Made by a program: the position numbers and the translations under genes
Shown: piece after piece, positions 19,685-49,914 of the stretch
Layout of the letters: each line of letters begins with the position of its first letter
Numbering within the stretch: the stretch's first letter is position 1
Notes under the pieces: model-generated
What the model saw: the letters and a program-made list of their open reading frames with translations, nothing else
Databases searched by the model: none
Told to the model about the DNA's origin: nothing
Assembly (NCBI RefSeq): GCF_016097555.1
Contig: NC_054708.1
Span: forward strand, 22,317,943 to 22,381,942
Direction of reading: 5' to 3'
Source of the DNA: Gigantopelta aegis
Lineage: Eukaryota; Mollusca; Gastropoda; Neomphalida; Peltospiridae
DNA: 64,000 nt

Positions 19685-19690
19685 CATACT
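19685..19690. repeat. Target-site duplication CATACT, left
   Basis: CATACT directly precedes AGTAATAACAAGG here and directly follows CCTTGTTACTACT at 26535-26540. A 6-bp duplication together with AG-starting termini is the signature of Polinton/Maverick insertion. Confidence 0.85.
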
Positions 19691-19798
19691 AGTAATAACA
19701 AGGCCTTCCTGGGGCTATGACCTACTTTCCGTGACCTTGACCTTGGTGTACTTGGCAGGTGTGAGTCATAGTGGTGTGGTCTACTAGGGTGAACGCTC

Positions 19799-19906
19799 GC
19801 CCGTGTCCCTGGCCGACTTAGGTTGGTACTGATGTCCTTGGACTGGCCCTGACCGACTTAAGTTGGTACTGATGTCCTTGGACTGGTTCTGACCGATTTG
19901 TTTAGC
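19799..19906 (+). repeat. Subterminal tandem repeats in the left TIR
   Basis: Units of about 40 bp containing CTGACCGACTTAAGTTGGTA, CTGATGTCCTTGGACTGG, repeated two to three times; mirrored at about 26319-26426. Subterminal repeats of this type could bind a terminal protein or transposase, but that is inference. Confidence 0.7.
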
Positions 19907-20049
19907 ATTGATCGACTTAGAAGGCAGTGACTGGTATACCTGGGCAGGTGTGCGACCTTGGTGTAAGTCATAGCCTTGACGTACTTGGTGTGTGACTCAT
20001 CGCCTAGCCTTGTCAGGGATGGTGTAAGATCATTAATTGCTACTAATGG

Positions 20050-20150
20050 GAAAGTGCAGCGGGTTTCCTCTCTAAAACTGTCAGAAGTATGTTTCACATC
20101 CAATAGCCGATGATTAATAAATCGAGATGCTCTAGTGGTGCCGTTAACCT
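20050..20150 (+). repeat. SINE T2 tail scrap inside the left TIR
   Basis: GCAGCGGGTTTCCTCTCTAA, CACATCCAATAGCCGATGAT and ATGCTCTAGTGGTGCCGTTA match the T2 tail. The same scrap is present at the mirrored position in the right arm (about 26076-26175). Confidence 0.75.
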
Positions 20151-20481
20151 ACCACATCTAAGGACTGCCCGACGCGAGGTAGTGTATTTAATTTTAGCGC
20201 GCTGAATGATGAATGGTTATCACTGTTTACATCCGGCAAGTGATGGTATCTTGTGTTGTCAGTCTCTAAATAAAATACTCTACGGAACTTCTAGAAGTTA
20301 AGTTCTCAAAGTCTGGCAGAAAGACGAAATGATTGAAATAGGTGAAAAAAGGAATTCTCGTTCTACACTATCTGATAGCACATTCACAAGATTATTATGA
20401 ACTGACCTATTTCGTCGCTTCATCCCGCGAGCACACACACACCCACACATATATATGGTTTAAATGACAGATTTTGCTTAT

Positions 20482-20552
20482 GTCTCGGTAGCTCAGTCGT
20501 TAGCGTAGTCGACTTGAGCGTGAAAGGTACGTCGTTCGTATCTCATGTGGTA
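20482..20552 (+). ncRNA. Degenerate tRNA-like sequence in the TIR
   Basis: TCTCGGTAGCTCAGTCGTTA gives a strong pol III A box (TAGCTCAGTCG). A weak B box (CGTTCGTATCTCA) follows 40-45 nt later. I could not close an acceptor stem, so this is not a functional tRNA; it is either a decayed tRNA or a SINE head without its body. The mirrored copy is at 25674-25743 on the minus strand. Confidence 0.5.
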
Positions 20553-20579
20553 GAAGTATTTTTCTTCTATTATTATTTT

Positions 20580-20655
20580 TTAAATTAGTTTATTTATTTA
20601 TTTATTTATTTGTTTTTATTTTATTTATTTATTTATTTGTTTATTTATTTATTAT
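20580..20655. repeat. (ATTT)n microsatellite in the TIR
   Basis: TTTATTTATTTA units interrupted by GTTT. The complement lies at about 25566-25640 in the other arm. Confidence 0.9.
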
Positions 20656-20699
20656 GTTCAAGCAGAACCCAATACAAGCATCCTCTAATAACCCTGTGT

Positions 20700-20957
20700 G
20701 GACGGGACGTAGCTCAGTGTTCCGTTGATGTGCGGTAGGTCTGGGATCGATCCCCGTCGGTGGGCCCATTGGGCTATATCCAGCCAGTGCTCCACAACTG
20801 GACAACGACCGTGGTATGTGCTATCCTGCCTGCTAATCGGAAGAGTAGCCCATGTAGTGGCGACAGCGGGTTTTCTCTCAAAATCTGTGTGGTCCTTAAC
20901 CATATGTCCGTATAACCGTAAATAAAATGTGTTGAGTAAATAAAACATTTCCTTCCT
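20700..20957 (+). repeat. SINE H1/T1 inside the left TIR
   Basis: GACGGGACGTAGCTCAGTGT, GGGATCGATCCCCGTCGGTG, body with CCAGTGCTCCACAACTGG, and a shortened T1 tail. It carries several unusual deletions (for example the AAAGATCCCTTG block is missing) that are shared with the right-arm copy, so the two arms have been copied from one another since the insertion. Confidence 0.85.
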
Positions 20958-21039
20958 CGTAAAATAAAGATTAATTGAATACAAATATTTATTTTTAGTA
21001 TTTTGTTTTAGTCATAGGGAAAGAAAGACATATTTGTCT

Positions 21040-21142
21040 CGAAGAAAGGAATGTTTGTTAAGAAGAAAGGCATATGCGTTAAGGAGAAGAAAGGAATATT
21101 TGTTAAGGAGAAGAAAGGGATGTTTGTTAAGGGAAGAAAGGA

Positions 21143-21178
<36 letters not shown>
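21040..21178 (+). repeat. 23-bp tandem array and (GT)n at the inner edge of the left TIR
   Basis: Five imperfect units of GAAGAAAGGAATGTTTGTTA(AG) type, then a (GT)n run of about 30 bp. The right arm carries the complement at 24903-25075 with a longer (CA)n, the expected difference for a microsatellite. Confidence 0.85.
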
Positions 21179-21181
<3 letters not shown>

Positions 21182-21212
21182 ATCCCTAACCCATTGCTTT
21201 GAAGAAAGAACG

Positions 21213-21408
21213 ACCTTGGCACACTTGGCAGGTGTCTGGCCTTGGTGTGAGTCATGGACCGCCCTTGGCATACTTGGCAGGTGTCTGGCCTTGGTATGAG
21301 TCATGCCCTGACCTACTTAGACTAGTTCCGTTGTGCCCTTGGACTGTTCCCCAGACTATTGTCCTTGGCCTACTTACGACTGGTCTTGACCTATGTAGGC
21401 TCGTATTT
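21213..21408 (+). repeat. Spacer with a roughly 44-bp imperfect tandem repeat, unique to the left side
   Basis: Two units of CTTGGCA(C/T)ACTTGGCAGG then TGTCTGGCCTTGGT(G/A)TGAG and TCATG. The same words occur in the outer TIR (ACTTGGCAGGTGTGAGTCAT near 19750), so inner and outer repeats share a motif. This lies just upstream of the first promoter. Confidence 0.7.
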
Positions 21409-21411
21409 AGA

Positions 21412-21444
21412 TATAAAAAGGGGTGTTTTGTTAGTAGCGTCATT
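21412..21444 (+). promoter_or_regulatory. TATA box and CGTCATT initiator of the BIR gene
   Basis: TATAAAAAG at 21412-21420 and CGTCATT at 21438-21444. The A of TCA lies 30 nt after the first T of TATA, the canonical TATA-to-start distance. The predicted transcript would have a leader of about 75 nt before the ATG at 21516. Confidence 0.7.
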
Positions 21445-21515
21445 CACTTGCCGAAAGTTCTGTGAACGAGATCTATTTTTGCTTTGGAGTTTGAAGATAT
21501 TCTGGTACGAAGAAA

Positions 21516-22067
21516 ATGACATCGGGATATTCGAGCAGTGTTAGTAGCAGCAGCAGTAGCGACGAGGACGACGTCTTGGTCTGCAAATGTTCAGAAAGAC
21601 ATACGATCAAAAGAGTGACTACCAAACAAGATGAGGAGAAGAAGAGTATTCATTATACGGATCAAACGGATGCTACACGTGACATTGGGGTTGGAACTGA
21701 AGATGGCGAACTCGTGGATGAACTCACAGATCAGACGGATGCTGCCTGTGAAACAGATGCTGCCTGTGAAACAGATGCTGCCTGTGAGGAAGATTGCTAT
21801 TCGAGACGTTACGTGTTCTGTCATCGTCCCGAAATGAGACATTTCTATGCCCGGATGCTGACGTATGCTCGGTGGCCCATACAATTACGTCAAAAACCAA
21901 AAGAACTTGCCAAGGCCGGTTTCTACTACACGGGAGACCACGATGCCATCACCTGTTACTGTTGCGGACCTCGCGTCTACCGATGGAAGAAGACAGACGA
22001 CCCAGTAATGGAACATTACAGACTCTCTCCAAGATGTCCTTATGTGAACAACCTCTTCAGACATTAA
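21516..22067 (+). CDS. BIR-domain (IAP-like) protein of the Polinton
   Basis: A 183-residue protein, apparently intact. Residues 5-20 are Ser- then Asp/Glu-rich. Residues 74-92 contain three tandem TDAACE-type hexapeptides. A single BIR domain spans about 105-180: it has the WP pair at 120-121, LAKAGFYYTG at 131-140 and a complete zinc-ligand set C147, C150, H167, C174 in the exact CX2CX16HX6C spacing, with the CCG and W157 positions also kept. No RING or CARD is present, so by itself it would not be an E3 ligase. Known: BIR proteins bind caspases or IAP antagonists, and baculoviruses and other DNA viruses use them against host apoptosis; some regulate cell division instead. Inferred: this is captured cargo acting for the element. 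It is the first of three same-strand genes and has its own TATA/initiator and an AATAAA 46 nt after the stop. Confidence 0.85.
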   Translation: MTSGYSSSVSSSSSSDEDDVLVCKCSERHTIKRVTTKQDEEKKSIHYTDQTDATRDIGVGTEDGELVDELTDQTDAACETDAACETDAACEEDCYSRRYVFCHRPEMRHFYARMLTYARWPIQLRQKPKELAKAGFYYTGDHDAITCYCCGPRVYRWKKTDDPVMEHYRLSPRCPYVNNLFRH

Positions 22068-22112
22068 ATGTTTTAGACACTTGTGTGCTATGTTTTCATG
22101 TTGTATGTTGTG

Positions 22113-22118
22113 AATAAA
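22113..22118 (+). terminator. Polyadenylation signal AATAAA of the BIR gene
   Basis: AATAAA lies about 46 nt after the stop codon, followed by a T-rich stretch, consistent with mRNA 3' end formation before the next promoter. Confidence 0.65.
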
Positions 22119-22338
22119 ACCGTGAATAACAGGTTTTGCTTTCTTATTTATGTCCTGGGTCCATGAGTGTGTCTCTGGACGTGTCCCTATGGTAGTAACA
22201 CTGGTAAAGGGTAATATTTTGGTAACGATTATTTTTGGGAGCTCGCACGATGAGATTTGTGCTTGGGAGGAGGGACACTGGTCATACGTATCACACACAT
22301 TCAAACATTCCTGTACCATATCTTTATGCGTCATAAGG

Positions 22339-22374
22339 TATATAAGTAAAATAGTTTTGGAAAAACTCGTCATT
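22339..22374 (+). promoter_or_regulatory. TATA box and CGTCATT initiator of the 111-residue gene
   Basis: TATATAAG at 22339-22346 and CGTCATT at 22368-22374. The spacing from TATAAG to CGTCATT is 27 nt, matching the other two promoters of the element. The ATG at 22401 lies about 29 nt after the predicted start. Confidence 0.7.
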
Positions 22375-22400
22375 TGAGGTAGAACTTTCAGAGGAGCAAC

Positions 22401-22736
22401 ATGTCAGACCAGTACAAGATATATGTACCCGACGTGGATAAGTGGACCCGTTTCTATAAACTGCAGGCACAAGGTAAACTTCAACCTCACTTCGAAATTC
22501 AACGTGGTGGGGAAAGTCAGATCATGTACAGTGTGGATCGATGTCTAGAACTCTACGATCCCACGTGGAAAAAAGAAAAAGAGGAACAGAACAAGTCCCC
22601 GACACCCAAAGTCGTCATGGTCTCCCCAACACAACAAGTGGTAGAGCAAGCCAAAGCCGATCTGAAACGGAAACAACAACAACAACAACAAAGTGGTACG
22701 GGTTGGAAAGCCCCGAAACTGCAGAAGCATTTCTAA
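22401..22736 (+). CDS. Small Polinton protein of unknown function, 111 residues
   Basis: An intact frame beginning MSDQYKIYVPDVDKW. The N-terminal half (1-60) looks folded, with aromatic residues at regular spacing. The C-terminal half is lysine-rich: KKEKEEQNK, then VSPTQQVVEQAKADLKRK, a Gln run encoded by CAA repeats, and a basic end. The VEQAKADLKRK segment is probably helical. I do not recognise the family with confidence. The charged, DNA- or capsid-binding look is suggestive only. It has its own TATA/initiator and ends 7 nt before the next TATA box, so the three genes are packed tightly. A start at the first ATG is favoured because it follows the predicted transcription start closely. 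Confidence 0.75.
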   Translation: MSDQYKIYVPDVDKWTRFYKLQAQGKLQPHFEIQRGGESQIMYSVDRCLELYDPTWKKEKEEQNKSPTPKVVMVSPTQQVVEQAKADLKRKQQQQQQSGTGWKAPKLQKHF

Positions 22737-22742
22737 ATAAGC

Positions 22743-22777
22743 TATAAAAGGAACTATGTGGGTCAGATATCGTCATT
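22743..22777 (+). promoter_or_regulatory. TATA box and CGTCATT initiator of the ATPase gene
   Basis: TATAAAAG at 22743-22750 and CGTCATT at 22771-22777, spacing 28 nt. The ATG at 22793 lies only about 18 nt after the predicted start. The TATA box starts 7 nt after the previous stop codon. Confidence 0.7.
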
Positions 22778-22792
22778 TCATTTGGAGTCGTC

Positions 22793-23070
22793 ATGCAGAG
22801 CACATGTTCAGAATGTGGTTTCACATTCTCGAGGAGAGACGCCATGTTAAGACATTTTCAACAAAAACATGCTAAAGGTCTACCACCACCACTACCACCA
22901 CCACCACAGCAGCAGCACCACCACCACCACCACCACCACCACCACAGCAGCAGCCACCACCACCACCACCACCACCACCACCACCACCACAGCAGCAGCC
23001 ACCACCACCACCACCACCACCACCACAGCAGCAGCCACCACCACCACCACCACCACCACCACCACAGCAG

Positions 23071-23102
<32 letters not shown>

Positions 23103-24424
23103 CACAGCAGCAGCCGCCACCACCACCACCACCACCACCACCACAGCAGCAGCAGCATCCCCTAAGATTGCTACATCCCTTCACCATGATCGTGTCGGGA
23201 CCCACGTCGTGTGGAAAGACATTTTTGGTATACAAATTGTTGAGAGATGGTAAAATCCAGCCGCCTCCCCAGCGCGTCATCTGGCTCTACAAACGATGGC
23301 AACCCCTCTATGATATGATCAAAAAGGTTGCTCGAGTGAAATTTGTTCAAGGTATACCTGAGAATTTGGAAAAGGATCGTTATTTGGATCCCAGAGTCAG
23401 AAATCTCATCGTGTTGGACGACCTGATGTGTATGGCTAATAAAGACTCAAGGATCACCGACCTGTTCACAGAAGGAAGTCATCACAGAAACTTATCCGTC
23501 ATCGCTATCAACCAGAACCTGTATCACAGCAAGGACCCGACACAGAGAAGAAAACTGCCATTATCTAGCGCTGTTCAACAACCCCATCGACAAGCAGCAA
23601 GTTCTGACTTTGGCACGGCAGATGTATCCGGAAAACACTAGTCATTTCATGCATCAGTTTGAGGAAGCTACCCACAGGCCCTCCGGACATCTCTTGGTGG
23701 ACTTGAAACCGACCACACCCGAATATTGGCGTCTTCGGCCTAATGGTTTAGAGACGGGGCCGTCCGAATGGTATAAAAGCACGAGCGTAACGGCGAATGT
23801 CTCAGAAGACGTGCAACCACTGTCGAAGAAAGAGCTCTACCTGCAAATTATGCAAAGGGGCGCATTCAAGAGAAAACTACCAGGCATACCCGCCTACGAA
23901 AGTGACGACGAAGAAGAAGATGATGAGGTAGAACCCTATCTGAAAAAAGTCAAGAGGATGCAGTCTTGCGATACGTGTGGTCTAGTCTTTAAAGACGGAA
24001 GCGACTTGCAGCGACACGTGAAAACGTGCGAAAAGGGAAATGGAGAGCCGTCGCCCGACCTGGAAAACGAAGGCATTCGTCTCATGGTGGAACGTGAATT
24101 CGACATCAATCGTGACTATCTCCAAAGCAAGAGGAAACGCTACGAAGAAAAAAACATGTCCCAAGATGCCATTGAAAGGAACATGAAGACATTGCAATGG
24201 AAGTTATTTAAAGACACGTACTCTCGCTTTCTGACATATATGCATTACTTTGACAAAGGTCCCAACACCAGGAAAATTTTACAGTTTGTGAATCCAGATA
24301 AAGATGTGAGACCACAGATTCGTTCTAAATTAAATCAGTATCGTTCATGGATCGGGAATATTTGGATGAACAAGACGACGACGATACCGACGATGAGGAG
24401 GACGACGATGATGAAGAGAAATGA
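22793..24424 (+). pseudogene. Packaging-type (A32/FtsK-like) ATPase with zinc fingers, frameshifted
   Basis: N-terminus: a C2H2 finger (C5, C8, H21, H26). Residues 30-125 are low complexity, with long His runs separated by Ser triplets, then Pro/Gln. The ATPase follows: Walker A GPTSCGKT at 136-143 and Walker B LIVLDD at 205-210, with a later INQN stretch typical of A32-like ATPases. A one-base shift in an A run near 23551-23554 moves the rest to another frame (open from about 23555). That part has an acidic segment (about 23900-23935), a second finger of C2HC type at 23967-24029 and a basic/helical region. A second shift near 24340-24350 precedes a very acidic tail ending at the stop 24422-24424. 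Known: such ATPases drive genome packaging in Polintons, adintoviruses and other viruses. The two breaks make this copy non-functional, unless they are sequencing errors. Confidence 0.82.
22895..23158 (+). repeat. (CAC/CAG)n coding minisatellite in the ATPase gene
   Basis: CAC runs of eight to twelve codons separated by CAGCAGCAG, giving poly-His blocks interrupted by Ser or Gln. At least five blocks are present. Frames on the other strand rich in Trp or Gly are mirror products. Length here is likely variable between copies. Confidence 0.93.
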
Positions 24425-24869
24425 ACACTCATATTATTCGCATGTCGCCATTAAGGCCTCTCGGTGTAACCCAATGTGTGTCCATTTCATGTGTAGTTGT
24501 CACTAGAGAGACCAGTGATTGTAATTTAGAAAAAAAAAAAAAATGAAAAACCAAACCATTGCGTTTTTTTTGCGTTTTTTTACTCTATGACTAGATTTGT
24601 GATTGGATATTTCTACCGCTACTTTATAGTAGCAAGAGCTGTGTGTACAAGACAGAAAATACCACGACCTTTGATATACCAGACATAATACACTGGTTGG
24701 CTATAGCTTAATGGGCCACCGACGGGGATCGATCCTAGATCGACCACTGTATTTACCCATTTGGTAATTAAAAAGCCCTGTAAAAAGGCTTGTACTCTAG
24801 GGAAATACTTGTGTTTAAAATGCAGTTAAAAGATCATAGGTTAGGTTGGAGGGTTGAGTTGCAGTCACG
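24425..24869. other. Core-to-TIR spacer with a reverse SINE fragment
   Basis: No gene. A 13-base A run lies at 24530-24542. At about 24630-24755 ATACCACGACCTTTGATATA, TACACTGGTTGGC and GGGGATCGATCCTAGATCGA match a reverse-oriented H1 SINE body and head that has lost its tail. Confidence 0.65.
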
Positions 24870-24901
24870 CGTTCTTTCTTCAAAGCAATGGGGCTGGGGA
24901 T

Positions 24902-24960
<59 letters not shown>

Positions 24961-25145
24961 TCCTTTCTTCCCTTAACAAACATCCCTTTCTTCTCCTTAA
25001 CAAATATTCCTTTCTTCTCCTTAACGCATATGCCTTTCTTCTTAACAAACATTCCTTTCTTCGAGACAAATATGTCTTTCTTTCCCTATGACTAAAACAA
25101 AATACTAAAAATAAATATTTGTATTCAATTAATCTTTATTTTACG

Positions 25146-25526
25146 AGGAAGGAAATGTTTTATTTACTCAACACATTTTATTTACGGTTATACGGACATA
25201 TGGTTAAGGACCACACAGATATTGATTGAGGAAAGAAAGAAATGTTTTATTTAACGACGCACTAAACACATTTTATTTACGGTTATACGGACATATGGTT
25301 AAGGACCACACAGATTTTGAGAGAAAACCCGCTGTCGCCACTACATGGGCTACTCTTCCGATTAGCAGCAAGGGATCCTACACTATCCCACAGGCAGGAT
25401 AGCACATACCACGGTCGTTGTCCAGTTGTGGAGCACTGGCTGGATATAGCCCAATGGGCCCACCGACGGGGATCGATCCCAGACCTACCGCACATCAACG
25501 GAACACTGAGCTACGTCCCGTCCACA
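25146..25526 (-). repeat. SINE H1/T1 inside the right TIR, with a doubled tail
   Basis: Matches the left-arm SINE, including its private deletions, but the T1 tail occurs twice (25147-25236 and 25237-25330). The inner tail has the fuller GTTTTATTTAACGACGCACT spelling, so a second SINE tail has been added to this arm only. Confidence 0.8.
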
Positions 25527-25673
25527 CAGGGTTATTAGAGGATGCTTGTATTGGGTTCTGCTTGAACATAATAAATAAATAAACAAATAAATAAATAAAT
25601 AAAATAAAAACAAATAAATAAATAAATAAATAAACTAATTTAAAAAATAATAATAGAAAAAAAAAAAACTTCT

Positions 25674-25743
25674 ACCACATGAGATACGAACGACGTACCT
25701 TTCACGCTCAAGTCGACTACGCTAACGACTGAGCTACCGAGAC
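25674..25743 (-). ncRNA. Degenerate tRNA-like sequence, right TIR copy
   Basis: Complement of the 20482-20552 sequence (GACTGAGCTACCGAGAC on the plus strand). Confidence 0.5.
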
Positions 25744-26534
25744 ATTGGCAAAATCTGTCATTTAAACCATATATATGTGTGGGTGTGTGTGTGCTCGCGG
25801 GATGAAGCGACGAAATAGGTCAGTTCATAATAATCTTGTGAATGCGCTATCAGATAGTGTAGAACGAGAATTCCTTTTTTCACCTATTTCAATCATTTCG
25901 TCTTTCTGCCAGACTTTGAGAACTTAACTTCTAGAAGTTCCGTAGAGTATTTTATTTAGAGACTGACAACACAAGATACCATCACTTGCCGGATGTAAAC
26001 AGTGATAACCATTCATCATTCAGCGCGCTAAAATTAAATACACTACCTCGCGTCGGGCAGTCCTTATACGTGGTAGGTTAACGGCACCACTAGAGCATCT
26101 CGATTTATTAATCATCGGCTATTGGATGTGAAACATACTTCTGACAGTTTTAGAGAGGAAACCCGCTGCACTTTCCCATTAGTAGCAATTAATGATCTTA
26201 CACCATCCCTGACAAGGCTAGGCGATGAGTCACACACCAAGTACGTCAAGGCTATGACTTACACCAAGGTCGCACACCTGCCCAGGTATACCAGTCACTG
26301 CCTTCTAAGTCGATCAATGCTAAACAAATCGGTCAGAACCAGTCCAAGGACATCAGTACCAACTTAAGTCGGTCAGGGCCAGTCCAAGGACATCAGTACC
26401 AACCTAAGTCGGTCAGGGACACGGGCGAGCGTTCACCCTAGTAGACCACACCACTATGACTCACACCTGCCAAGTACACCAAGGTCAAGGTCACGGAAAG
26501 TAGGTCATGGCCCCAGGAAGGCCTTGTTACTACT

Positions 26535-26540
26535 CATACT
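26535..26540. repeat. Target-site duplication CATACT, right
   Basis: Identical to 19685-19690. Confidence 0.85.
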
Positions 26541-28518: not shown

Positions 28519-30006
<1,488 letters not shown>

Positions 30007-30024
<18 letters not shown>

Positions 30025-31568
30025 AACGTTTTCTTGTGTTCGAAGTTTGTGACGGGACCAGTCATTATGGGTGTTGTAAAGGACTTGCCTGTTGAAAACA
30101 TTGGAGTTTTGTTGGGTAATGATTTGACTAGTCAGTGTTGTCAGCCGAAATGTGACCAATTGTTAATTAAAGACAGCCCTTTACTAGTAGGAGAGAGTGA
30201 GGTTGATGAGATTAGATATCCTGCGTGTGTAATGACTAGGGCTATGGCCAGAAGGGTAAAACGAGACCCAGGGAATATTTGTGATTTGTCTGATACATGT
30301 GTGAGCCATGAAATTGGAGTGGATGAGGATATCAGTAAAATGGTAGATAAGTCAACTGACGAACAAAATGTGGTGGAACCTGTTGATCTCCCGCAGAGGG
30401 GAAATGAACCAGTTGTGGTTGATAGAGGGGACTTACCTTGTAATAGACAAGAGTTAGTTCTAGAGCAGGGCGCTGATCCAAATTTGTTGACAGCTCGCAC
30501 TACATTGTTAACTGAGAAAGGCTAGAAGGCTAGAAAGGCTAGAAGGCTAGAAAGCAACTGAGCCATGCTCAGAGCAAAATAAAATCAGTGTTTGATAGGA
30601 AGGCTAGGAGTCGGGAATTTAAACCAGGGAATAAGGTGCTGATGTACCTTCCCATTAAACGGGGTTCATTGCAGAACAGGTATTTCGGGCCCTATGTTGT
30701 GCACAAACGGGTTAATGAGACAGGGTATGTGATAAACACTCCTGATAGGGTTAGGAAAAGTAGGTATTGTCACATCAATTTGCTAAAAGGTTATTTTGAC
30801 AGACTGCCGATAGTTCCAGAGTTACCGGTCCAAATTGAGAGTCACTCAATTTCCTGTGATGACGTCAAGACTGCAGAGATCAAGTTGGCCAACGGCCAGA
30901 TTCTAGCAGACTTGAGGCCCCGGCGAGAAAAGTTGACTACGCTGATACAAGACAATGTTTCCATTTATCATGACCTTCCAACGGTTACCAACACCTTAAG
31001 CCAGGATGTGCGCTTGGAACCCAACGCTACACCGATTCGACAGCATGCCTATCGGAGAAAACCTGGAAAACGTGCGACACTGAAAAAGAAAGAAACGAAG
31101 TTCCAGTAGTCAGTTGAATGCGAGAAGTCATTCAACCGTCTCAAGGAGATGCGCTACTCGTCTCCCGTGATGGCAGCACCAGACTACCGAATGCCGTTCA
31201 AGCTAGCTGTGGATGCCAGTGACGTGGGAGCTGGAGCTGTGCTGTTCCAGGAAGACGAAAATGGACTGGACCATCCTGTAAGTTTCTTCTCCAAAAAGTT
31301 TGACAAACACCAGGTGAACTATTCCACTATAGAGAAGGAAGCTTTGGCCATGGTACAAGCTCTGAAGCATTTTCAGATCTACGTGAAATCGGCAGTGCAT
31401 CAAGTGGTGGTCTTTACTGACCATAATCCGCTTACTTTCATTCACAGAATGAAAGCCACCAACCAGAGAATTTTGAGATGGAGTCTTCTTCTGCAAGAAT
31501 TCCCAATTACCATTGAACATATCAAGGGCACTTCTAATGTAATCGCTGATGCCCTGTCCCGAAGTTGA
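30007..31568 (+). pseudogene. pol: pol remnant of Gypsy copy 1 (GPY/F tail, RNase H)
   Basis: Three pieces: 30007-30525 (post-protease spacer with MTRAMARR), 30588-31109 (integrase GPY/F: FGPYVVHKRVNETGYVI, CHINLLKGYF, then an RT leader ATPIRQHAYR) and 31149-31568 (RNase H with VDASDVGAGAVL, STIEKEALA, FTDHNPL, ending VIADALSRS). A stop at 31107-31109 replaces the Trp codon seen in copy 2. AAGGCTAGA repeats at 30517-30552 replace a 60-bp segment of copy 2. RT and integrase cores are missing. Confidence 0.88.
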
Positions 31569-33022: not shown

Positions 33023-34080
33023 TGTTAAATAAAACATTTCCTACGTTCCTGATTTAATTCATTCATTCTTCGGTTCCCTTTTGACACAAACGGACTACAG
33101 TCTGTATTAATAAAATGATATATTACATTACCATATTGCAGATTTTATTACAACAATAACGAAATGACGTGTATATGCTTTATTACATCCATAAATCTTT
33201 TCTAAACAGAGAATGATGTGTTTATCCATGTGCAAAAACAAAGGGTTCTAATAATTAATGTACGCAATAACCTTTAGTGATTTGCTAGCACGATATCGAT
33301 AAGGAGGCAGACGGTATCGCCATGACAGATATAATAATCGTGCGCCTACAGATACACGTTAACACTCTAGTACTACGGTTAATAATAAATATGCAGCTAC
33401 AGTGAATCGTACGACGAGATACTTGTTGTACACTCGGTTTGAGAGGTGTCAGGATAATGTCTATCATCTATGATGGCTTAGAGCATTCACGGAATATCGG
33501 GTAAAAGTATCAGCCTGAACACTTGAGTTACTGATGGTGCATGCGGTAGTTATACGGAATGATACTATGGCTTGCGAAGATGGTGTTGGTGAAGAGAAAA
33601 AATAGACAGTTTTTTTAAACGACATTGCGCACGTGTGCACATGGCATACTTAAACAAATCCAATTAGGGACTGCTTAGATCAAAATAGTATATCTGACTT
33701 GTTGACATAAATGTGTGAAGAAAAAAAAAAGAAGAAAAAAAAAAAGGAGAAAAGGCCAAAGAGGCCAAAGATAACTAATTATTAAAGGTGTTGTGTATTC
33801 TAAAAGCTCAGGAAAACGTACAGATATATCTGCATCGATACTACTTCCATGATCGGATTTCAGCACAAGTCAGACTTTTAATAGAACTTGAAGGATTTTG
33901 GACAATTTCCAAAGAGGACAACTGATACACTGAAGACAAATTGCCATAGTTTTTGAGCGATATACACTCACATAAAGACAGTTAAAGGATGTGAATTTTG
34001 AAGCCACTATACATGTACAAATACGAACACACGTACAGCCGTTACTGCTAGCTATAAAGCACGTGGAGTTTGGTTTTACA
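33023..34080. other. Upstream region of the GPCR gene
   Basis: No other gene is visible. Segments at about 33490-33680 and 33855-33960 are conserved in the decayed paralog at 55100-55300 and 55600-55705 (for example CAGCCTGAACACTTGAGTTA and ACTGAAGACAAATTGCC), so they belong to the ancestral locus, probably promoter and 5' untranslated exon. Poly-A/GA-rich sequence lies at 33718-33752. Confidence 0.55.
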
Positions 34081-35073
34081 ATGACTATCTTGCCAGTTTC
34101 TACGGTAAACTCAGACTCAGTTTTGAATAATTCACAGACAGATGATTGTGAGCTTTTATTTCCTGAAAGTTCAATGGTGCAAGGATACGTCACATTTGGT
34201 TTGTTGTGCACAATACCGGTTCTTACCTTATTTGGAAATGCGCTGGTAATCGCATGCTACACCAAGTTCCAATTCCTGCGTACAAAGTGTCATATTTTCG
34301 TCATATCACTTGCCACTGCCGATATTTGTGTTAGTGTGTTTGTGATGCCTTTAAGACTTTACGAAGTCATTAATAATGGAGAATGGTATTTAGGACACGT
34401 CCTATGCGACGTGGTTAACATAGCTGACGTTGCCCTGAGTACAACATCAATTCTAAACCTGGCAGGCCTTGCATTCGAACGATATCTTGTAATCTGCCGC
34501 AATTTCTTTCACCGGAAGTTGAGCAGAAGAAAAATCATCTTGCTGGTCATGCTGTGTTGGTTTCTACCAGTACTGGTTTTTGTTCTGCCAATGGCATTCA
34601 AGTGGCACGTCATCGGAATAGAACATTTAATCAACTGTGCTTCAACGTCACCTTCTCGTTGCCCGTTGCTACTGAATGTGCCATATGGTATCATAGCAAC
34701 ATGTACTTCCTTCCACGTCCCTTTAATCTTCATGATCGTCTGTTACTGGAGGATACTACTGGCTGCACGAAGACACACGGAAGTCGTTCGGAACTTTTCG
34801 ACGCAAAGAAACCAACTGCAGCTTCAGCGGGAAACTAAAGCTGCAAGGACTCTTGGGATCGTAATGGGGTGTTTCTGTATCTGTTGGCTACCATTTAGCG
34901 TTATCAGCACGATTGGATCTCTCTCCAGCTACTCTGTTAATGTTCCTTCTGTAGTGTCCATTTCCATGTGGCTAGGGTACGCCAATTCGTGCATGAATCC
35001 TTTACTGTACTATGTTTTCAGTCACGATTTCAAGGTGGCCTACACAGCAATATTTCATTGTAGGTGTCGCTAG
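34081..35073 (+). CDS. Class A GPCR, biogenic-amine-like, single exon
   Basis: The frame opens at 33991 (360 codons); the Met at 34081 is a likelier start because it is followed by a short extracellular N-terminus with NNS/NSQ glycosylation sites, giving 330 residues. In 360-residue numbering: G82-N83 in TM1; LATAD with D111 in TM2; C139 and aminergic D146 (DVALSTTSILNL) in TM3; E163-R164-Y165 as the DRY variant; S/F before the TM5 proline (TSFHVP); CWLP 298-301 with F295 in TM6; WLGY 327-330 and NSCMNPLLY 332-340 in TM7. D146 with W327 and Y330 is the amine-binding signature. TM5 lacks the usual pair of adjacent serines and TM6 has FS in place of FF, so the ligand may not be a catecholamine. 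Intracellular loop 3 is short (about 35 residues). It acts at the plasma membrane through a G protein; ligand unknown. No intron within the coding region. Confidence 0.92.
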   Translation: MTILPVSTVNSDSVLNNSQTDDCELLFPESSMVQGYVTFGLLCTIPVLTLFGNALVIACYTKFQFLRTKCHIFVISLATADICVSVFVMPLRLYEVINNGEWYLGHVLCDVVNIADVALSTTSILNLAGLAFERYLVICRNFFHRKLSRRKIILLVMLCWFLPVLVFVLPMAFKWHVIGIEHLINCASTSPSRCPLLLNVPYGIIATCTSFHVPLIFMIVCYWRILLAARRHTEVVRNFSTQRNQLQLQRETKAARTLGIVMGCFCICWLPFSVISTIGSLSSYSVNVPSVVSISMWLGYANSCMNPLLYYVFSHDFKVAYTAIFHCRCR

Positions 35074-39180: not shown

Positions 39181-40782
39181 CTACTCAAAAGAATTTAAGG
39201 GTCAGACGATATTTTCGACATTATTTTCTGAATGTCAATTATATTAGCTAGACCATAATGTCACGCATGGTATTGTTCCATTTTGACGAAAGTGGGTCTA
39301 AGCAACCCATAAATGAATTAAAATCCACTGTCATTGACACTGTCGACTAGTTCTAATGGCGAAAACATGCTTACATTTGCATGTAAATTAGGGCGAAAGC
39401 GAAAGGTCTGCTAAGTGCCCATAACTTGCTTTTTCACAAAGCGCTTCATTTGCACGCTTTGCACGTGTATTCCATGTTCCCAATGCTGACTTTCCGTATA
39501 ATTGGAGCTTGCGTTCGTGTACGGTGCACACTCCAAATTCGACAATGGTACGACTTCAACTGACTATCGAAGATCGAGGAAGGGCTATTGCTTGGCTTCA
39601 GGATGGCAATACGCAAAGAAATGTTGCTCTGAGACTTGGTGTCAGTCAGAGTGTCGTTGGCCGACTGTGGCAACGGTACCAAGCAACGAATTCTGTTCGA
39701 AATCGTCCACGTTCGGGAAGACCCGAAGCACTACAAATAGAGAGGACAACTACATCACCAATATGGCTCTACGTCAACGCACAACCACTGCACGCCGATT
39801 ACGTGACAATCTGCGGACTGCCACTGGAACTCGAGTGTCTGATCAAACCATACGCAATCGTCTGAGAGCCAATAATCTACGCTGCTGTCGCCAGGCTGTT
39901 CGACCACCACTCCTACCACGTCACAGAACGGCCAGACGTCACTGGTGCACACTTCATCTGCGGTGGCAACGTGTTCAGTGGGGTCGAGTGATGTTCACTG
40001 ATTAGTCCAGGTTTAGTCTCCAGTTCAACGACGGTCAGGTTCGTGTCTACAGATGTCCTGGGGAGCGCTTCGCTGACGTTAACGTTAGACAACGTCACCG
40101 GTTCGGTGGTGGCAGCGTCATGGTGTGGGGCGGCATCTCTATCCACCACAGGACCCCTCCTCTATGTGGTGGATGGCAATCTGAATGGAATCCGCTATCT
40201 GAATGAGATTATCCGGCCGTTGGTTCTCCCAGGCCTTCAGCAGATTGGCGGCGGGGCAGTTCTGCAGGATGACAATGCCAGACCCCACCGCGCCAGGGTG
40301 GTAACGGACTTTCTCAGACAACAAGGTATCGCCAGGATGGATTGGCCAGCATATTCGCCTGACTTGGCCCCAATAGAGCACGCCTGGGACGAATTAGGCA
40401 GGAGAGTTCAGGATAACCACGCCCCTCCGGCCAACCTTCATGATCTGGGTCAACTTCTTATGGCAGAGTGGCAGGCCATTCCCCATGAGTTCATAAGACG
40501 TCTGATCAACAGCATGAGGCAACGATGTGTCGAGTGTATTCGCGCCAGGGGTGGATTCACACACTATTAAACGAATGTTCTAATGTGTAAAATCCATGTT
40601 TGACAACCTTCAACTTTGACAGCATGTCATGTGACTTTCTTGTATACAGTGACGTTTATTTGTGGGGTTTTGTAAATATGAAACAATAAATAAAAAAAAT
40701 TGGTGTAGTTTACATCATCAATCTAATACACTCTGAAACTTATTTGGTTATACATTTTTGACCCTTAAATTCTTTTGAGTAG
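39181..40782 (+). mobile_element. Tc1/mariner element (DD34E), 1602 bp
   Basis: Terminal repeats CTACTCAAAAGAATTTAAGG(GTCA) and its complement, flanked by TA on both sides (39179-39180 and 40783-40784). It carries one broken transposase gene. The length and TA target are typical for a full-size Tc1 element. Confidence 0.9.
39545..40570 (+). pseudogene. Tc1 transposase, inactivated
   Basis: N-terminal paired-like helix-turn-helix region MVRLQLTIEDRGRAIAWLQD, GVSQSVVGRLWQRY, and a GRPR-type hook (PRSGRPE). The frame shifts near 39740 into MALRQRTTTARRLRDNL. At the first catalytic motif (FTD.SRF) the Glu codon has become a stop at 40003-40005. A further shift occurs near 40150. The second Asp is in LQDDNARPHRA and the final Glu in SPDLAPIEHAWDELGRR, giving DD34E. 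Three lesions make the gene dead. The enzyme would have cut and pasted the element at TA sites. Confidence 0.9.
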
Positions 40783-47167: not shown

Positions 47168-47201
<34 letters not shown>

Positions 47202-47235
47202 TAGGGATAGAGAATTCCAGTTCGCAAAATTAAAA
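46714..47235 (+). pseudogene. gag: gag N-terminal region of copy 2, frame broken by microsatellite and one T
   Basis: Starts MDKNLLDRPTLSVVEI as in copy 1. One extra T near 46872 shifts the frame; a second frame (46889-47134) runs from MEDSEIVPEIEINEL into Arg-Glu/Asp-Arg repeats encoded by a GA/GATA microsatellite and stops there. The capsid frame opens again at 47236. In an intact relative these parts would be one gag N-terminus with a charged, RE/RD-rich coiled region. Confidence 0.8.
46999..47212 (+). repeat. GA/GATA-type coding microsatellite in gag
   Basis: About 210 bp of GAGA with GATAGAGA variants, less homogeneous than the pure GA run of copy 1. Confidence 0.9.
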
Positions 47236-49914
47236 GTGGAACATGAGTTAAAGTTGAATACTGAAGAAGTTAGACGGGAAGCCGGAAATGGTTTTAACAT
47301 GTCGGAGGCTTATAGATCAGTGCCTGTATTTGATGACCAGGAGGTAGACATGTTCTTCCAACTTTTTGAACGGGCCGCTAAGCAGCTAAATTGGCCGCAG
47401 TCTAAGTGGACATTGTTAGCCGTGTCTAAGTTTAAGGGGAAGGCTAGTGTAGCCTATAATTCAATGAGTGATGAGCGAGCAAGTCAGTACGACCTAGTTA
47501 AGGCGGCAGTGTTGAGGGCGTATGAATTACGACCTGAGGATTATCGTTTACGGTATAGCGAATTGAGAAAAACGCAGGGTCAGTCTTATAGTGAGTTTGT
47601 GGCTAAGAAGGCAGGGATGTTTGATAAATGGGTTGTTTCTCATCAGGTAGAGTCATATACCGAGTTACGGGAGTTGTTGATCTTACAGGACATTAAAAAT
47701 GGATTACCAGTTAGCTTACGTATTCATTTAGAGGATCGTGATGTCAAAAAGATAGAGGAGGCAGGCATAGTGGCAGATGATTACGTGTTAATACACAAAG
47801 CTCAGGCAGTACAGGGTAGCTCTATACAACAGGGTGATAAGAAGAAATTTCAGCCAGGTTTTTCCCGGGAAGGTAACTATCGGGGAGAGTCATCTAGTTG
47901 GTCAGCTAGTCAGACAAGGAATGCACCTGGTGGGCAAAGTAAGGATAGGCCTGCATTATCAGCCAATGCACAAACTTTTCGTCCACATTGTAGTTACTGT
48001 AAAAAGGATAACCACCTTGTCGGGGACTGTTTTAAAAGGAAACGCGATAATGCGCAAGTGGTCGGTTTAGTGAGGTCAGCTCCGTTAGCGAGAGAGTTAA
48101 TGGTTAGTCCCATGGCAGAGAAGGTAAACCCGTATGTGTCCACTGGTATGGTTTGTGATGTGAAACAAGAATTGAGTCCTAAGGCAATATCAATCTATCG
48201 AGATACAGGCTGTAGTCAGTCGCTGATCACGTCGGAGTGTTTAGCTGGTATTAAGAATTCAGATACAGGACGTAGTTTGGCTTTAACCTCAGTTACTGGA
48301 GAAAATATGGTAGTCCGGTTACATAACGTTTTCTTGTGTTCGAAGTTTGTGACGGGACCAGTCATTATGGGTGTTGTGACGGATTTGCCTGTTGAAAACA
48401 TAGGAGTTTTGTTGGGTAATGATTTGACTAGTCAGTGTTGTCAGCCGAAATGTGACCAATTGTTAAATAAAGACAGCCCTTTTCCAATAGAAGAGAGTGA
48501 GGTTGATGAGATTAGATATCCTGCGTATGTAATGACTAGGGCTATGGCCAGTAGGTTAACACGATACCCAGAGGATATTTGTGATTTGTCTGATACGTGT
48601 GTGAGCCATGAAATTCGAGTGGATGAGGTTATCAGTAAAATGGTATATAATTCAACTGAGGAATTAAATGTGGTGGAACCTGTTGATCTCCCGCAGAGGG
48701 CAATTGAACCAGTTGTGTTTGATAGAGGGGATTTACCTTGTAATAGACCAGAGTTAATTCTAGAGCAGGGGGCTGATCCAAAATTGTTGGCAGCTCGCAC
48801 TACATTGTTAACAGAGGGTGAGATGGAGGATCAGATGTCAGGTTATGATATGAACAAGGGAGTATTAATGAATAAGAGAGTGTTTGATAGGAAGGCTAGA
48901 AAACAACTGAGCCATGCTCAGAGCAAAATAAAATCAGTGTTTGATAGGAAGGCTAAGAGTCGGGAATTTAAACCAGGGGATAAAGTGCTGCTGTACCTTC
49001 CCATTAAACGGGGTTCATTACAGAACAGGTATTTCGGTCCCTATGTTGTGCACAAACGGGTTAATGAGACAGGGTATGTGATAAACACTCCTGATAGGGT
49101 TAGGAAAAGTAGGTATTGTCACATCAATTTGCTAAAAGGTTATTTTGACAGACTGCCGATAGTTCCATTGTTGCCTGTCCAAATTGAGAGTCACTCAACT
49201 TCCTGTGATGACGTCAAGACTGCAGAGATCAAATTAACCAACAGCCAGATTCTAGCAGACTTGAGCCCCCAGCGAGCAAAGCTGTCTACATTGATACAAG
49301 ACAATGTTTCCATTTGTCATGATCTTCCAACGGTTACCAACACCGTAAGCCAGGATGTGCGCTTGGAACCCAACGCTACACCGATTCGACAGCATGCCTA
49401 TCGGAGAAAACCTGGGAAACGTGCGCCACTGAAAAGGAAGGAAACGGAGTTCCAGTGGTCAGATGAATGCGAGAAGTCATTCAGCCGTCTCAAGCAGATG
49501 CTCTCCTCGTCTCCCGTGATGGCAGCACCAGACTACCGAATGCCTTTCAAGCTAGCTGTGGATGCCAGTGACGTGGGAGCTGGAGCTGTGCTGTTCCAGG
49601 AAGACGAAAATGGACTGGACCATCCTGTAAGTTTCTTCTCCAAAAAGTTTGACAAACACCAGGTGAACTATTCCACTATAGAGAAGGAAGCTTTGGCCAT
49701 GGTACAAGCTCTGAAGCATTTTCAGATCTACGTGAAATCGGCAGTGCATCAAGTGGTGGTCTTTACTGATCATAATCCGCTTACCTTCATTCACAGAATG
49801 AAAGCCACCAACCAGAGAGTTTTGAGATGGAGTCTTCTGCAGGAATACCCAATTACCATTGAACATATCAAGGGCACATCCAATGTAATCGCTGATGCCC
49901 TGTCCCGAAGTTGA
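47236..49914 (+). CDS. gag-pol: Gag-Pol of the non-autonomous Gmr1-like element, 892 residues
   Basis: One open frame. Residues 1-200: SCAN-like capsid (FQLFERAAKQLNW, LRYSELRKTQ, LLILQDIKNGLPVSL). CCHC knuckle with first Cys at 252 (CSYCKKDNHLVGDC). Protease DTG at 323-325. After a spacer with MTRAMA, an integrase GPY/F module (GPY at 601-603, ending CHINLLKGYF). An RT leader (LPTV, then ATPIRQHAYR near 715) is followed at once by the connection and RNase H domain with D776, E818 and D845, ending ADALSRS. The RT palm (no YxDD) and the integrase HHCC/DDE core are absent. A usual Gypsy pol has more than 1000 residues. The order capsid-protease-integrase-RT-RNase H is that of the Gmr1 clade. 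It probably supplies or mimics structural protein but must rely on a helper for reverse transcription and integration. Confidence 0.9.
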   Translation: MEHELKLNTEEVRREAGNGFNMSEAYRSVPVFDDQEVDMFFQLFERAAKQLNWPQSKWTLLAVSKFKGKASVAYNSMSDERASQYDLVKAAVLRAYELRPEDYRLRYSELRKTQGQSYSEFVAKKAGMFDKWVVSHQVESYTELRELLILQDIKNGLPVSLRIHLEDRDVKKIEEAGIVADDYVLIHKAQAVQGSSIQQGDKKKFQPGFSREGNYRGESSSWSASQTRNAPGGQSKDRPALSANAQTFRPHCSYCKKDNHLVGDCFKRKRDNAQVVGLVRSAPLARELMVSPMAEKVNPYVSTGMVCDVKQELSPKAISIYRDTGCSQSLITSECLAGIKNSDTGRSLALTSVTGENMVVRLHNVFLCSKFVTGPVIMGVVTDLPVENIGVLLGNDLTSQCCQPKCDQLLNKDSPFPIEESEVDEIRYPAYVMTRAMASRLTRYPEDICDLSDTCVSHEIRVDEVISKMVYNSTEELNVVEPVDLPQRAIEPVVFDRGDLPCNRPELILEQGADPKLLAARTTLLTEGEMEDQMSGYDMNKGVLMNKRVFDRKARKQLSHAQSKIKSVFDRKAKSREFKPGDKVLLYLPIKRGSLQNRYFGPYVVHKRVNETGYVINTPDRVRKSRYCHINLLKGYFDRLPIVPLLPVQIESHSTSCDDVKTAEIKLTNSQILADLSPQRAKLSTLIQDNVSICHDLPTVTNTVSQDVRLEPNATPIRQHAYRRKPGKRAPLKRKETEFQWSDECEKSFSRLKQMLSSSPVMAAPDYRMPFKLAVDASDVGAGAVLFQEDENGLDHPVSFFSKKFDKHQVNYSTIEKEALAMVQALKHFQIYVKSAVHQVVVFTDHNPLTFIHRMKATNQRVLRWSLLQEYPITIEHIKGTSNVIADALSRS

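What the first reader, a model, noticed from the sequence alone, without database searches (positions are those of the whole stretch)
19691..26534. A 6.8-kb Polinton derivative with BIR, small unknown and ATPase genes only
The 6-bp CATACT duplication, AG-starting ends and 1.5-kb inverted repeats are seen directly and match Polinton insertion. Yet the element is less than half the usual size and its core is three neatly packed genes, with no polymerase, integrase, protease or capsid. The packing (7 nt between a stop and the next TATA box) does not look like random deletion. It may be a satellite-like Polinton lineage that keeps an anti-apoptotic cargo and packaging functions and borrows the rest.
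Basis: partly seen in the sequence, partly recalled or inferred. Interest (0 to 1): 0.87.

Follow-up and report, generated by a model that had tools for sequence, protein, structure and literature searches.

The report
Truncated snail Polinton carrying anti-apoptosis gene
This is a shortened copy of a virus-like jumping gene (a Polinton), probably in a snail, that lacks the usual copying, insertion and shell genes but keeps an anti-cell-death gene, a small unknown gene and a damaged DNA-packing gene, and relatives of these three genes occur in the same order in a deep-sea vent snail.

Summary
The element at 19691-26534 (6844 bp) is real: CATACT duplication, AG-starting ends, inverted repeats of 1522 and 1665 nt with 12 substitutions in 1522 aligned sites, and three plus-strand genes. 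Gene 1 is a single-BIR (IAP) protein with all zinc ligands. Gene 2 is a small conserved protein without a known fold. Gene 3 is a relative of FtsK/A32-type packaging ATPases, but here a frame change breaks it and its tail is out of frame too. No polymerase, integrase, protease or capsid match was found in 26 of 33 core ORFs of 60 aa or more. Two Gigantopelta aegis gene models give the context. One reads collinearly across BIR, small gene and ATPase, so the block is older than this copy. The other joins the same BIR family to an integrase-like/chromodomain protein. I favour a non-autonomous, internally deleted Polinton derivative, moved in trans, from a lineage with a resident BIR gene. A distinct short satellite lineage remains open: all 20 requests to search the host genome failed. 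Host repeats without a single difference between the two arms show that the arms were homogenised after those insertions.

The parts
19685..19690 (+). left target-site duplication CATACT
26535..26540 (+). right target-site duplication CATACT
19691..21212 (+). left terminal inverted repeat, starts AGTAATAACAAGG
   Evidence: 12 substitutions in 1522 aligned positions against the right arm
24870..26534 (-). right terminal inverted repeat, starts AGTAGTAACAAGG on the minus strand
20016..20147 (.). host repeat inside left arm, also in right arm; 0 of 132 positions differ between arms
20471..20660 (.). block with TTTA-rich tail, also at 25563-25754 in right arm (4 of 190 positions differ); tRNA likeness read by eye, no other copy in the window
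20686..20980 (.). host SINE-type copy inside left arm; right arm has it at 25123-25537 with a 95-nt duplication; 0 of 295 aligned positions differ
21208..21305 (.). two 49-nt copies of a motif (ACTTGGCAGGTGT) that also lies in the outer part of the TIRs
21412..21417 (+). TATA-like box upstream of BIR gene
   Evidence: chance level
21516..22067 (+). single-BIR protein, 183 aa, CX2CX16HX6C intact, no RING match
22339..22344 (+). TATA-like box upstream of small gene
   Evidence: chance level
22401..22736 (+). small conserved protein, 111 aa, function unknown
22743..22748 (+). TATA-like box upstream of ATPase gene, 6 nt after the small gene's stop
   Evidence: chance level
22793..23641 (+). ATPase gene, first frame: C2H2-like finger, 60-residue His/Ser tract, P-loop; homology ends at about 23551
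23553..24506 (+). ATPase gene, second frame: rest of ATPase domain, second C2H2 finger, C-terminal region; homology ends at about 24359

Best explanation
A non-autonomous, internally deleted Polinton/Maverick. It descends from a gastropod Polinton lineage in which an IAP-type BIR gene is a long-standing resident beside a small gene and the packaging ATPase. Shown: element boundaries, gene content, the broken ATPase, a multi-copy BIR family, the ancestral order BIR-small-ATPase, and homogenised arms. Inferred: the polymerase and integrase of full Polintons act in trans on the AG-ended inverted repeats to copy and insert the element; the BIR protein delays caspase-driven death of the cell while element DNA is copied; the ATPase, where intact, pumps DNA into borrowed capsids. 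The arms were kept alike by copying one from the other (gene conversion, or replication through annealed ends), because host repeats inside them are identical in both.
For: TSD, AG ends and TIRs. ATPase: relative P0004 exceeds Pfam's cut-off for Pox_A32; a low-confidence model of P0004 has 38 viral fold matches at E<=0.001, among them Drosophila-associated adintovirus 3 FtsK-like protein, adenovirus IVa2 and A32-like packaging ATPases, though with low TM-scores. Contig L001, from a mussel-symbiont MAG, has the same ATPase (53% identity) head-to-head with weak DNA_pol_B_2 matches. G. aegis model P0010 matches window 21834-22046, 22557-22673 and 23994-24134 in order on one strand. G. aegis model P0021 joins the BIR to a transposase-like region (phrog_956, E 0.003) and a chromodomain (Pfam 4.6e-7). 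10 of 12 BIR relatives at E<=1e-8 are G. aegis proteins. No polymerase, integrase, protease or capsid match in 35 of the element's 79 ORFs of 45 aa or more given to Pfam, 26 of the 33 core ORFs of 60 aa or more included.
Against: No full-length donor with the same TIRs was seen, so the deletion and its breakpoints are inferred. The 363 nt between the ATPase reading frame and the right TIR hold no recognisable gene remnant, only a SINE fragment. P0010 and P0021 are automatic gene models; distances between their exons are unknown. The integrase label of P0021 rests on one weak family match, a chromodomain and recalled features. The polymerase label of L001 rests on two matches below Pfam's cut-off (E 0.078, 0.097) and one of its pieces showed no polymerase in PDB.
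Confidence: 0.65

Rival explanations
1. A distinct short Polinton lineage (satellite): the three-gene layout with long TIRs is the unit that multiplies, borrowing polymerase, integrase and capsid from full Polintons.
For: Same gene order in a diverged Gigantopelta copy; arms carrying host repeats were copied or converted after those insertions; no remnant of a deleted gene seen in the core.
Against: No second short element was seen; the ATPase is broken here; P0021 links the BIR family to an integrase-like protein, as in a full element; the TATA boxes behind the packing argument are at chance level.
Confidence: 0.18
2. A full Polinton inserted here and lost its middle in place, after insertion; the short form never moved.
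For: Broken ATPase; no short sister copy known.
Against: Arms differ by under 1%, so the last homogenisation is recent, and the core shows no remnant of other genes. Neither excludes it.
Confidence: 0.1
3. Two-part arrangement: one element type carries BIR-small-ATPase, another carries BIR plus integrase (and perhaps polymerase), and the two complement each other.
For: P0010 (BIR-small-ATPase) and P0021 (BIR-integrase-like) have different BIR sequences, 62% identical over shared columns.
Against: Both gene models fit a single long element too; exon distances unknown.
Confidence: 0.05
4. Assembly artefact (misjoined inverted repeats or indel errors).
For: Long near-identical inverted repeats are hard to assemble; the frame change lies in an A-rich stretch.
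Against: Matching TSD on both sides and a gene order shared with another gene model.
Confidence: 0.02

Closest known systems
Polinton/Maverick transposons (polintoviruses)
   Same: 6-bp TSD, AG ends, long TIRs (end features recalled from Kapitonov and Jurka 2006, not held); FtsK/A32-type packaging ATPase relative
   Different: 6.8 kb, against 15-20 kb (PMC4028283, passages) or 10-15 kb (PMC6035795, passages); no pPolB, integrase, protease or capsid match; ATPase broken
Adintoviruses
   Same: ATPase fold match to Drosophila-associated adintovirus 3 FtsK-like protein, from a low-confidence model
   Different: no polymerase, integrase or capsid match here
Virophages
   Same: the idea of borrowing functions from a larger partner
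   Different: virophages keep capsid proteins, packaging ATPase and protease of their own (PMC11071308, passages); no capsid match here
Ginger2 transposons
   Same: 6-bp target sequence, integrases that group with those of Polintons (PMC2836005, passages)
   Different: Ginger2 ends are TGTNR and the target RTATAY; here AGTARTAAC and CATACT; no transposase match
Molluscan IAP gene families
   Same: BIR domain with zinc ligands; IAP listed among gene families expanded in G. aegis (PMC7895826, section 8 read)
   Different: single BIR, no RING match, carried between the TIRs of a mobile element

Membership tests
Polinton/Maverick | 6-bp TSD, AG ends, long TIRs | tested here: met
   the definition itself is recalled (source not held)
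Polinton/Maverick | size 15-20 kb (10-15 kb in another source) | tested here: not met
   6844 bp; sizes from passages of PMC4028283 and PMC6035795
Polinton/Maverick | protein-primed family B polymerase | tested here: not met
   no Pfam match in the ORFs tested; of six L001 minus-strand pieces, five find nothing in the window and one matches only the ATPase's C2H2 finger over 21 residues, E 0.004
Polinton/Maverick | RVE-type integrase | tested here: not met
   no Pfam match in the ORFs tested; only the BIR part of P0021 matches the window; an integrase-like protein sits beside the same BIR family in G. aegis
Polinton/Maverick | cysteine protease, major and minor capsid proteins | tested here: not met
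   no Pfam match in the ORFs tested; divergent capsid proteins can escape Pfam, but outside the three genes the longest core ORFs are 172 aa (antisense to BIR) and frames of the His tract
Polinton/Maverick | FtsK-like packaging ATPase | tested here: inconclusive
   homologous by relatives but frame-broken in this copy
Satellite lineage of Polintons | several copies with the same short layout and same TIRs | not tested
   The genome search did not answer in 20 tries; the TIR-end pattern gave 0 in viral contigs, where host copies are not expected
IAP (BIR) proteins | BIR domain with CX2CX16HX6C | tested here: met
IAP, Type II BIR able to bind IAP-binding motifs | E76/Q76, H77, W80/H80, C84 (PMC8917759, passages) | tested here: inconclusive
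   window has E-H-Y-R-L-S-P-R-C: E76 and H77 as in Type II, L80 and S81 as in Type I-like (positions placed by eye)

The most novel reading that the evidence does not exclude
A satellite-like Polinton lineage in gastropods whose multiplying unit is long homogenised TIRs plus BIR, small gene and packaging ATPase, which borrows polymerase, integrase and capsid from full Polintons and spreads IAP genes through the genome, feeding the IAP expansion reported for Gigantopelta.
Probability: 0.17. Interest if true: 0.78.

Novelty: new variant of a known kind. Interest (0 to 1): 0.52.

Why it matters
The BIR gene looks like a stable resident of a Polinton lineage rather than a chance capture: 11 related G. 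aegis proteins sit on sequences of 8 different lengths, and in one of them (P0010) the same neighbours follow it. The G. aegis genome paper lists IAP among expanded immunity-related families beside transposable elements (PMC7895826, section 8 read) and has 0 occurrences of Polinton or Maverick. Part of that expansion may therefore be copies of virus-like elements rather than host immune genes; this is inference, but directly testable. The element also gives a case for asking whether satellite-like, trans-mobilised Polintons exist.

Tried and rejected
Searched viral contigs with the ATPase alignment (62 pattern matches, 0 confirmed), the small-protein alignment (153 pattern matches, 0 confirmed), P0021 (no pattern match) and the TIR end (0). 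Genome contigs gave one locus, L001, out of 23 pattern matches; it lies in a mussel-symbiont MAG and is probably mussel DNA. tblastn of P0004 in phages: no match. Rfam on the window: 0. The small-protein model (mean pLDDT 69.1) had 0 of 836 fold matches at E<=0.001, so I claim no function for it. The ATPase model is poor (mean pLDDT 46.0) and its viral fold matches have TM-scores (query length) of 0.18-0.33 in the top 38; they are support only. The ATPase alignment against PDB found zinc-finger proteins and no packaging ATPase among the matches. NCBIfam gave one match below cut-off. Ginger2 was rejected on the ends. A programmed frameshift in the ATPase was considered: 3 of 3 relatives that span the site (P0002, P0003, P0004) read through it in one frame, so I do not favour it. 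TATA boxes as a sign of design: 114 of 500 shuffles (single-base shuffles) reach the observed 5; for this I lowered the satellite reading from 0.20 to 0.18 and the novel case from 0.18 to 0.17, and raised the in-place deletion from 0.08 to 0.10.

Pfam was run on 35 of the 79 stop-to-stop ORFs of 45 aa or more in the element (count). Of the 33 core ORFs of 60 aa or more, 26 were run; the seven left out are five frames over the His/Pro/Gln tract and two in the CA-rich start of the right TIR.

Literature: Polinton or Maverick with IAP was searched (1 paper; 0; 1, listing only; 0; 4; two of them listing only). Passages read in PMC8905726 and PMC9679248 do not join the two topics. The oyster IAP paper PMC8917759 (passages) names retroposition and has 0 occurrences of Polinton or Maverick. 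Short or non-autonomous Polintons were sought; of those lists I read passages of PMC11071308, PMC6431247, PMC4028283, PMC6035795, PMC2836005 and PMC2871265, and found no matching element there. The rest of these lists I saw as listings only.
Full report
What is there. The element spans 19691-26534, 6844 bp. It is flanked by CATACT at 19685-19690 and 26535-26540, begins AGTAATAACAAGG, and on the other strand begins AGTAGTAACAAGG. The inverted repeats run 19691-21212 and 24870-26534; they differ at 12 of 1522 aligned positions, and the right arm is longer by five indels, the largest 95 nt. The similarity ends where the element ends: 60 nt beyond the TSDs the flanks are 30% identical. The 6-bp match lies exactly at the repeat boundaries; CATACT occurs six times on the plus strand of the 64-kb window, these two included, so chance is unlikely.

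Genes. The core holds three plus-strand genes with ATGs at 21516, 22401 and 22793. TATA-like boxes lie upstream at 21412, 22339 and 22743, but two more lie inside genes, and 114 of 500 single-base shuffles of the core contain as many as the five seen; the boxes alone prove little. The BIR protein (183 aa) matches Pfam BIR at 7.4e-22 and has the full CX2CX16HX6C pattern. Its best solved relatives are NAIP and cIAP BIR domains. By the residue rules quoted in PMC8917759 (passages) it mixes Type II (E76, H77) and Type I-like (L80, S81) positions, so binding of IAP-binding motifs cannot be read from sequence. The small protein (111 aa) has no Pfam match, six relatives and no significant fold match.

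The ATPase is broken. Relatives P0002-P0004 share a P-loop, RWQPLYD, LDDLM and FTEGSHHRN stretches and a C2H2 finger after the ATPase domain; the two that reach the N-terminus (P0003, P0004) also have a C2H2 finger there, while P0002 starts at the P-loop. In the window, P0002 matches 23186-23551 in one frame and 23553-24359 in the next, with neighbouring residues of P0002 on either side. The acidic tail seen in P0001 is not in the open frame after about 24359. A sequencing error cannot be excluded. P0004 exceeds Pfam's cut-off for Pox_A32; the window's own first piece matches Adeno_IVa2 just under its cut-off (20 against 21 bits). A low-confidence model of P0004 (mean pLDDT 46.0) has 38 viral fold matches at E<=0.001, many of them packaging ATPases, among them an adintovirus FtsK-like protein and adenovirus IVa2, all with low TM-scores for the query. 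A profile search of PDB sequences found zinc fingers and no packaging ATPase.

What is missing. Of 79 stop-to-stop ORFs of 45 aa or more in the element, 35 were given to Pfam; of the 33 in the core of 60 aa or more, 26. None matches a polymerase, integrase, protease or capsid protein; the only weak extra match is DUF4680 at E 0.032, below cut-off. By tblastn at E<=0.01, of six L001 minus-strand pieces five find nothing in the window and one matches only the ATPase's first C2H2 finger (21 residues, E 0.004); of P0021 only the BIR part matches. Short or very divergent remnants could be missed.

Relatives. With P0010 these 11 G. aegis proteins lie on sequences of 8 different lengths. The window's BIR falls among them: P0016 is 76% identical and P0022 90% (over 40 residues), more than many G. 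aegis copies share with each other. In the tree the window groups with P0016, P0011 and P0017 with support 92/92, below the starred level. The host is thus probably Gigantopelta or a near relative; this is inference.

Gene order. P0010, a G. aegis model, matches the window in three blocks in order on one strand: 21834-22046 (BIR, 54%), 22557-22673 (small gene, 77%) and 23994-24134 (ATPase C-terminal region, 79%). The order BIR-small-ATPase is therefore older than this copy. P0021, another G. aegis model, joins the BIR (66% over 87 residues) to a region with a weak transposase match (phrog_956, E 0.003) and a chromodomain (Pfam 4.6e-7). I read it as the C-terminal half of a Polinton integrase. 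It lacks a GPY/F motif by eye, which PMC2836005 calls a hallmark of Gypsy and ERV integrases (passages), but the reading is partly recalled. L001, from a mussel-symbiont MAG, has the ATPase facing minus-strand pieces with two DNA_pol_B_2 matches below cut-off (E 0.078 and 0.097); a PDB search with one piece showed no polymerase. Together they suggest that the three genes come from a Polinton-type element that elsewhere has an integrase and perhaps a polymerase.

Inverted repeats. Each arm carries host repeats: one at 20016-20147 and a SINE-type copy at 20686-20980, both with relatives elsewhere in the window at about 70-88% identity. Between the arms these blocks differ at 0 of 132 and 0 of 295 aligned positions. 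Such insertions are unlikely to have hit both arms at the same place independently, so one arm was copied from the other afterwards. Gene conversion in the chromosome and replication of linear DNA through annealed ends both explain this, and I cannot separate them. A third block, 20471-20660, looks tRNA-derived by eye but has no other copy in the window.

How it probably works. Shown: ends, TSD, genes, broken ATPase, arm homogenisation, shared gene order. Inferred: full Polintons supply polymerase and integrase in trans; the BIR protein delays death of the cell; an intact ATPase would pack DNA into borrowed capsids. As the sequence stands this copy's own ATPase would not be made whole, so it is best seen as a passenger.

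Not decided. Whether several short copies exist is the central question and stays open: 20 identical requests to search the host genome did not complete. I give 0.65 to a trans-mobilised deletion derivative of a BIR-carrying Polinton lineage, 0.18 to a short satellite lineage and 0.10 to deletion in place. By defining features it fails as an autonomous Polinton (size, polymerase, integrase, protease, capsid), so I call it a derivative and not a member.

Noticed in passing
28803-31568 and 47170-49914: Two copies of a Gypsy-type LTR derivative with the order SCAN-like, integrase C-terminal SH3-like (below Pfam cut-off) and RNase H, without a reverse-transcriptase core match in the pieces tested; the second copy is one 914-aa ORF, so a shortened form may have multiplied.
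   Followed up: partly
33976-35073: Rhodopsin-family GPCR in one open frame (Pfam 7tm_1 2.2e-55).
   Followed up: no
39425-40570: Tc1-type transposase remains in separate frames: helix-turn-helix matches below cut-off and a DDE_3 match.
   Followed up: no
L001:1140-5256: Polinton-like contig (ATPase, itself not in one frame, facing polymerase-like pieces) inside a published symbiont MAG, probably contamination from the mussel.
   Followed up: partly
P0022 (G. aegis gene model): A gene model named piezo-type channel begins with about 40 residues of this BIR, probably an annotation fusion or an element inserted near the gene.
   Followed up: no
21885-22403 (-): 172-aa stop-free antisense frame over the BIR gene, no Pfam match.
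   Followed up: partly
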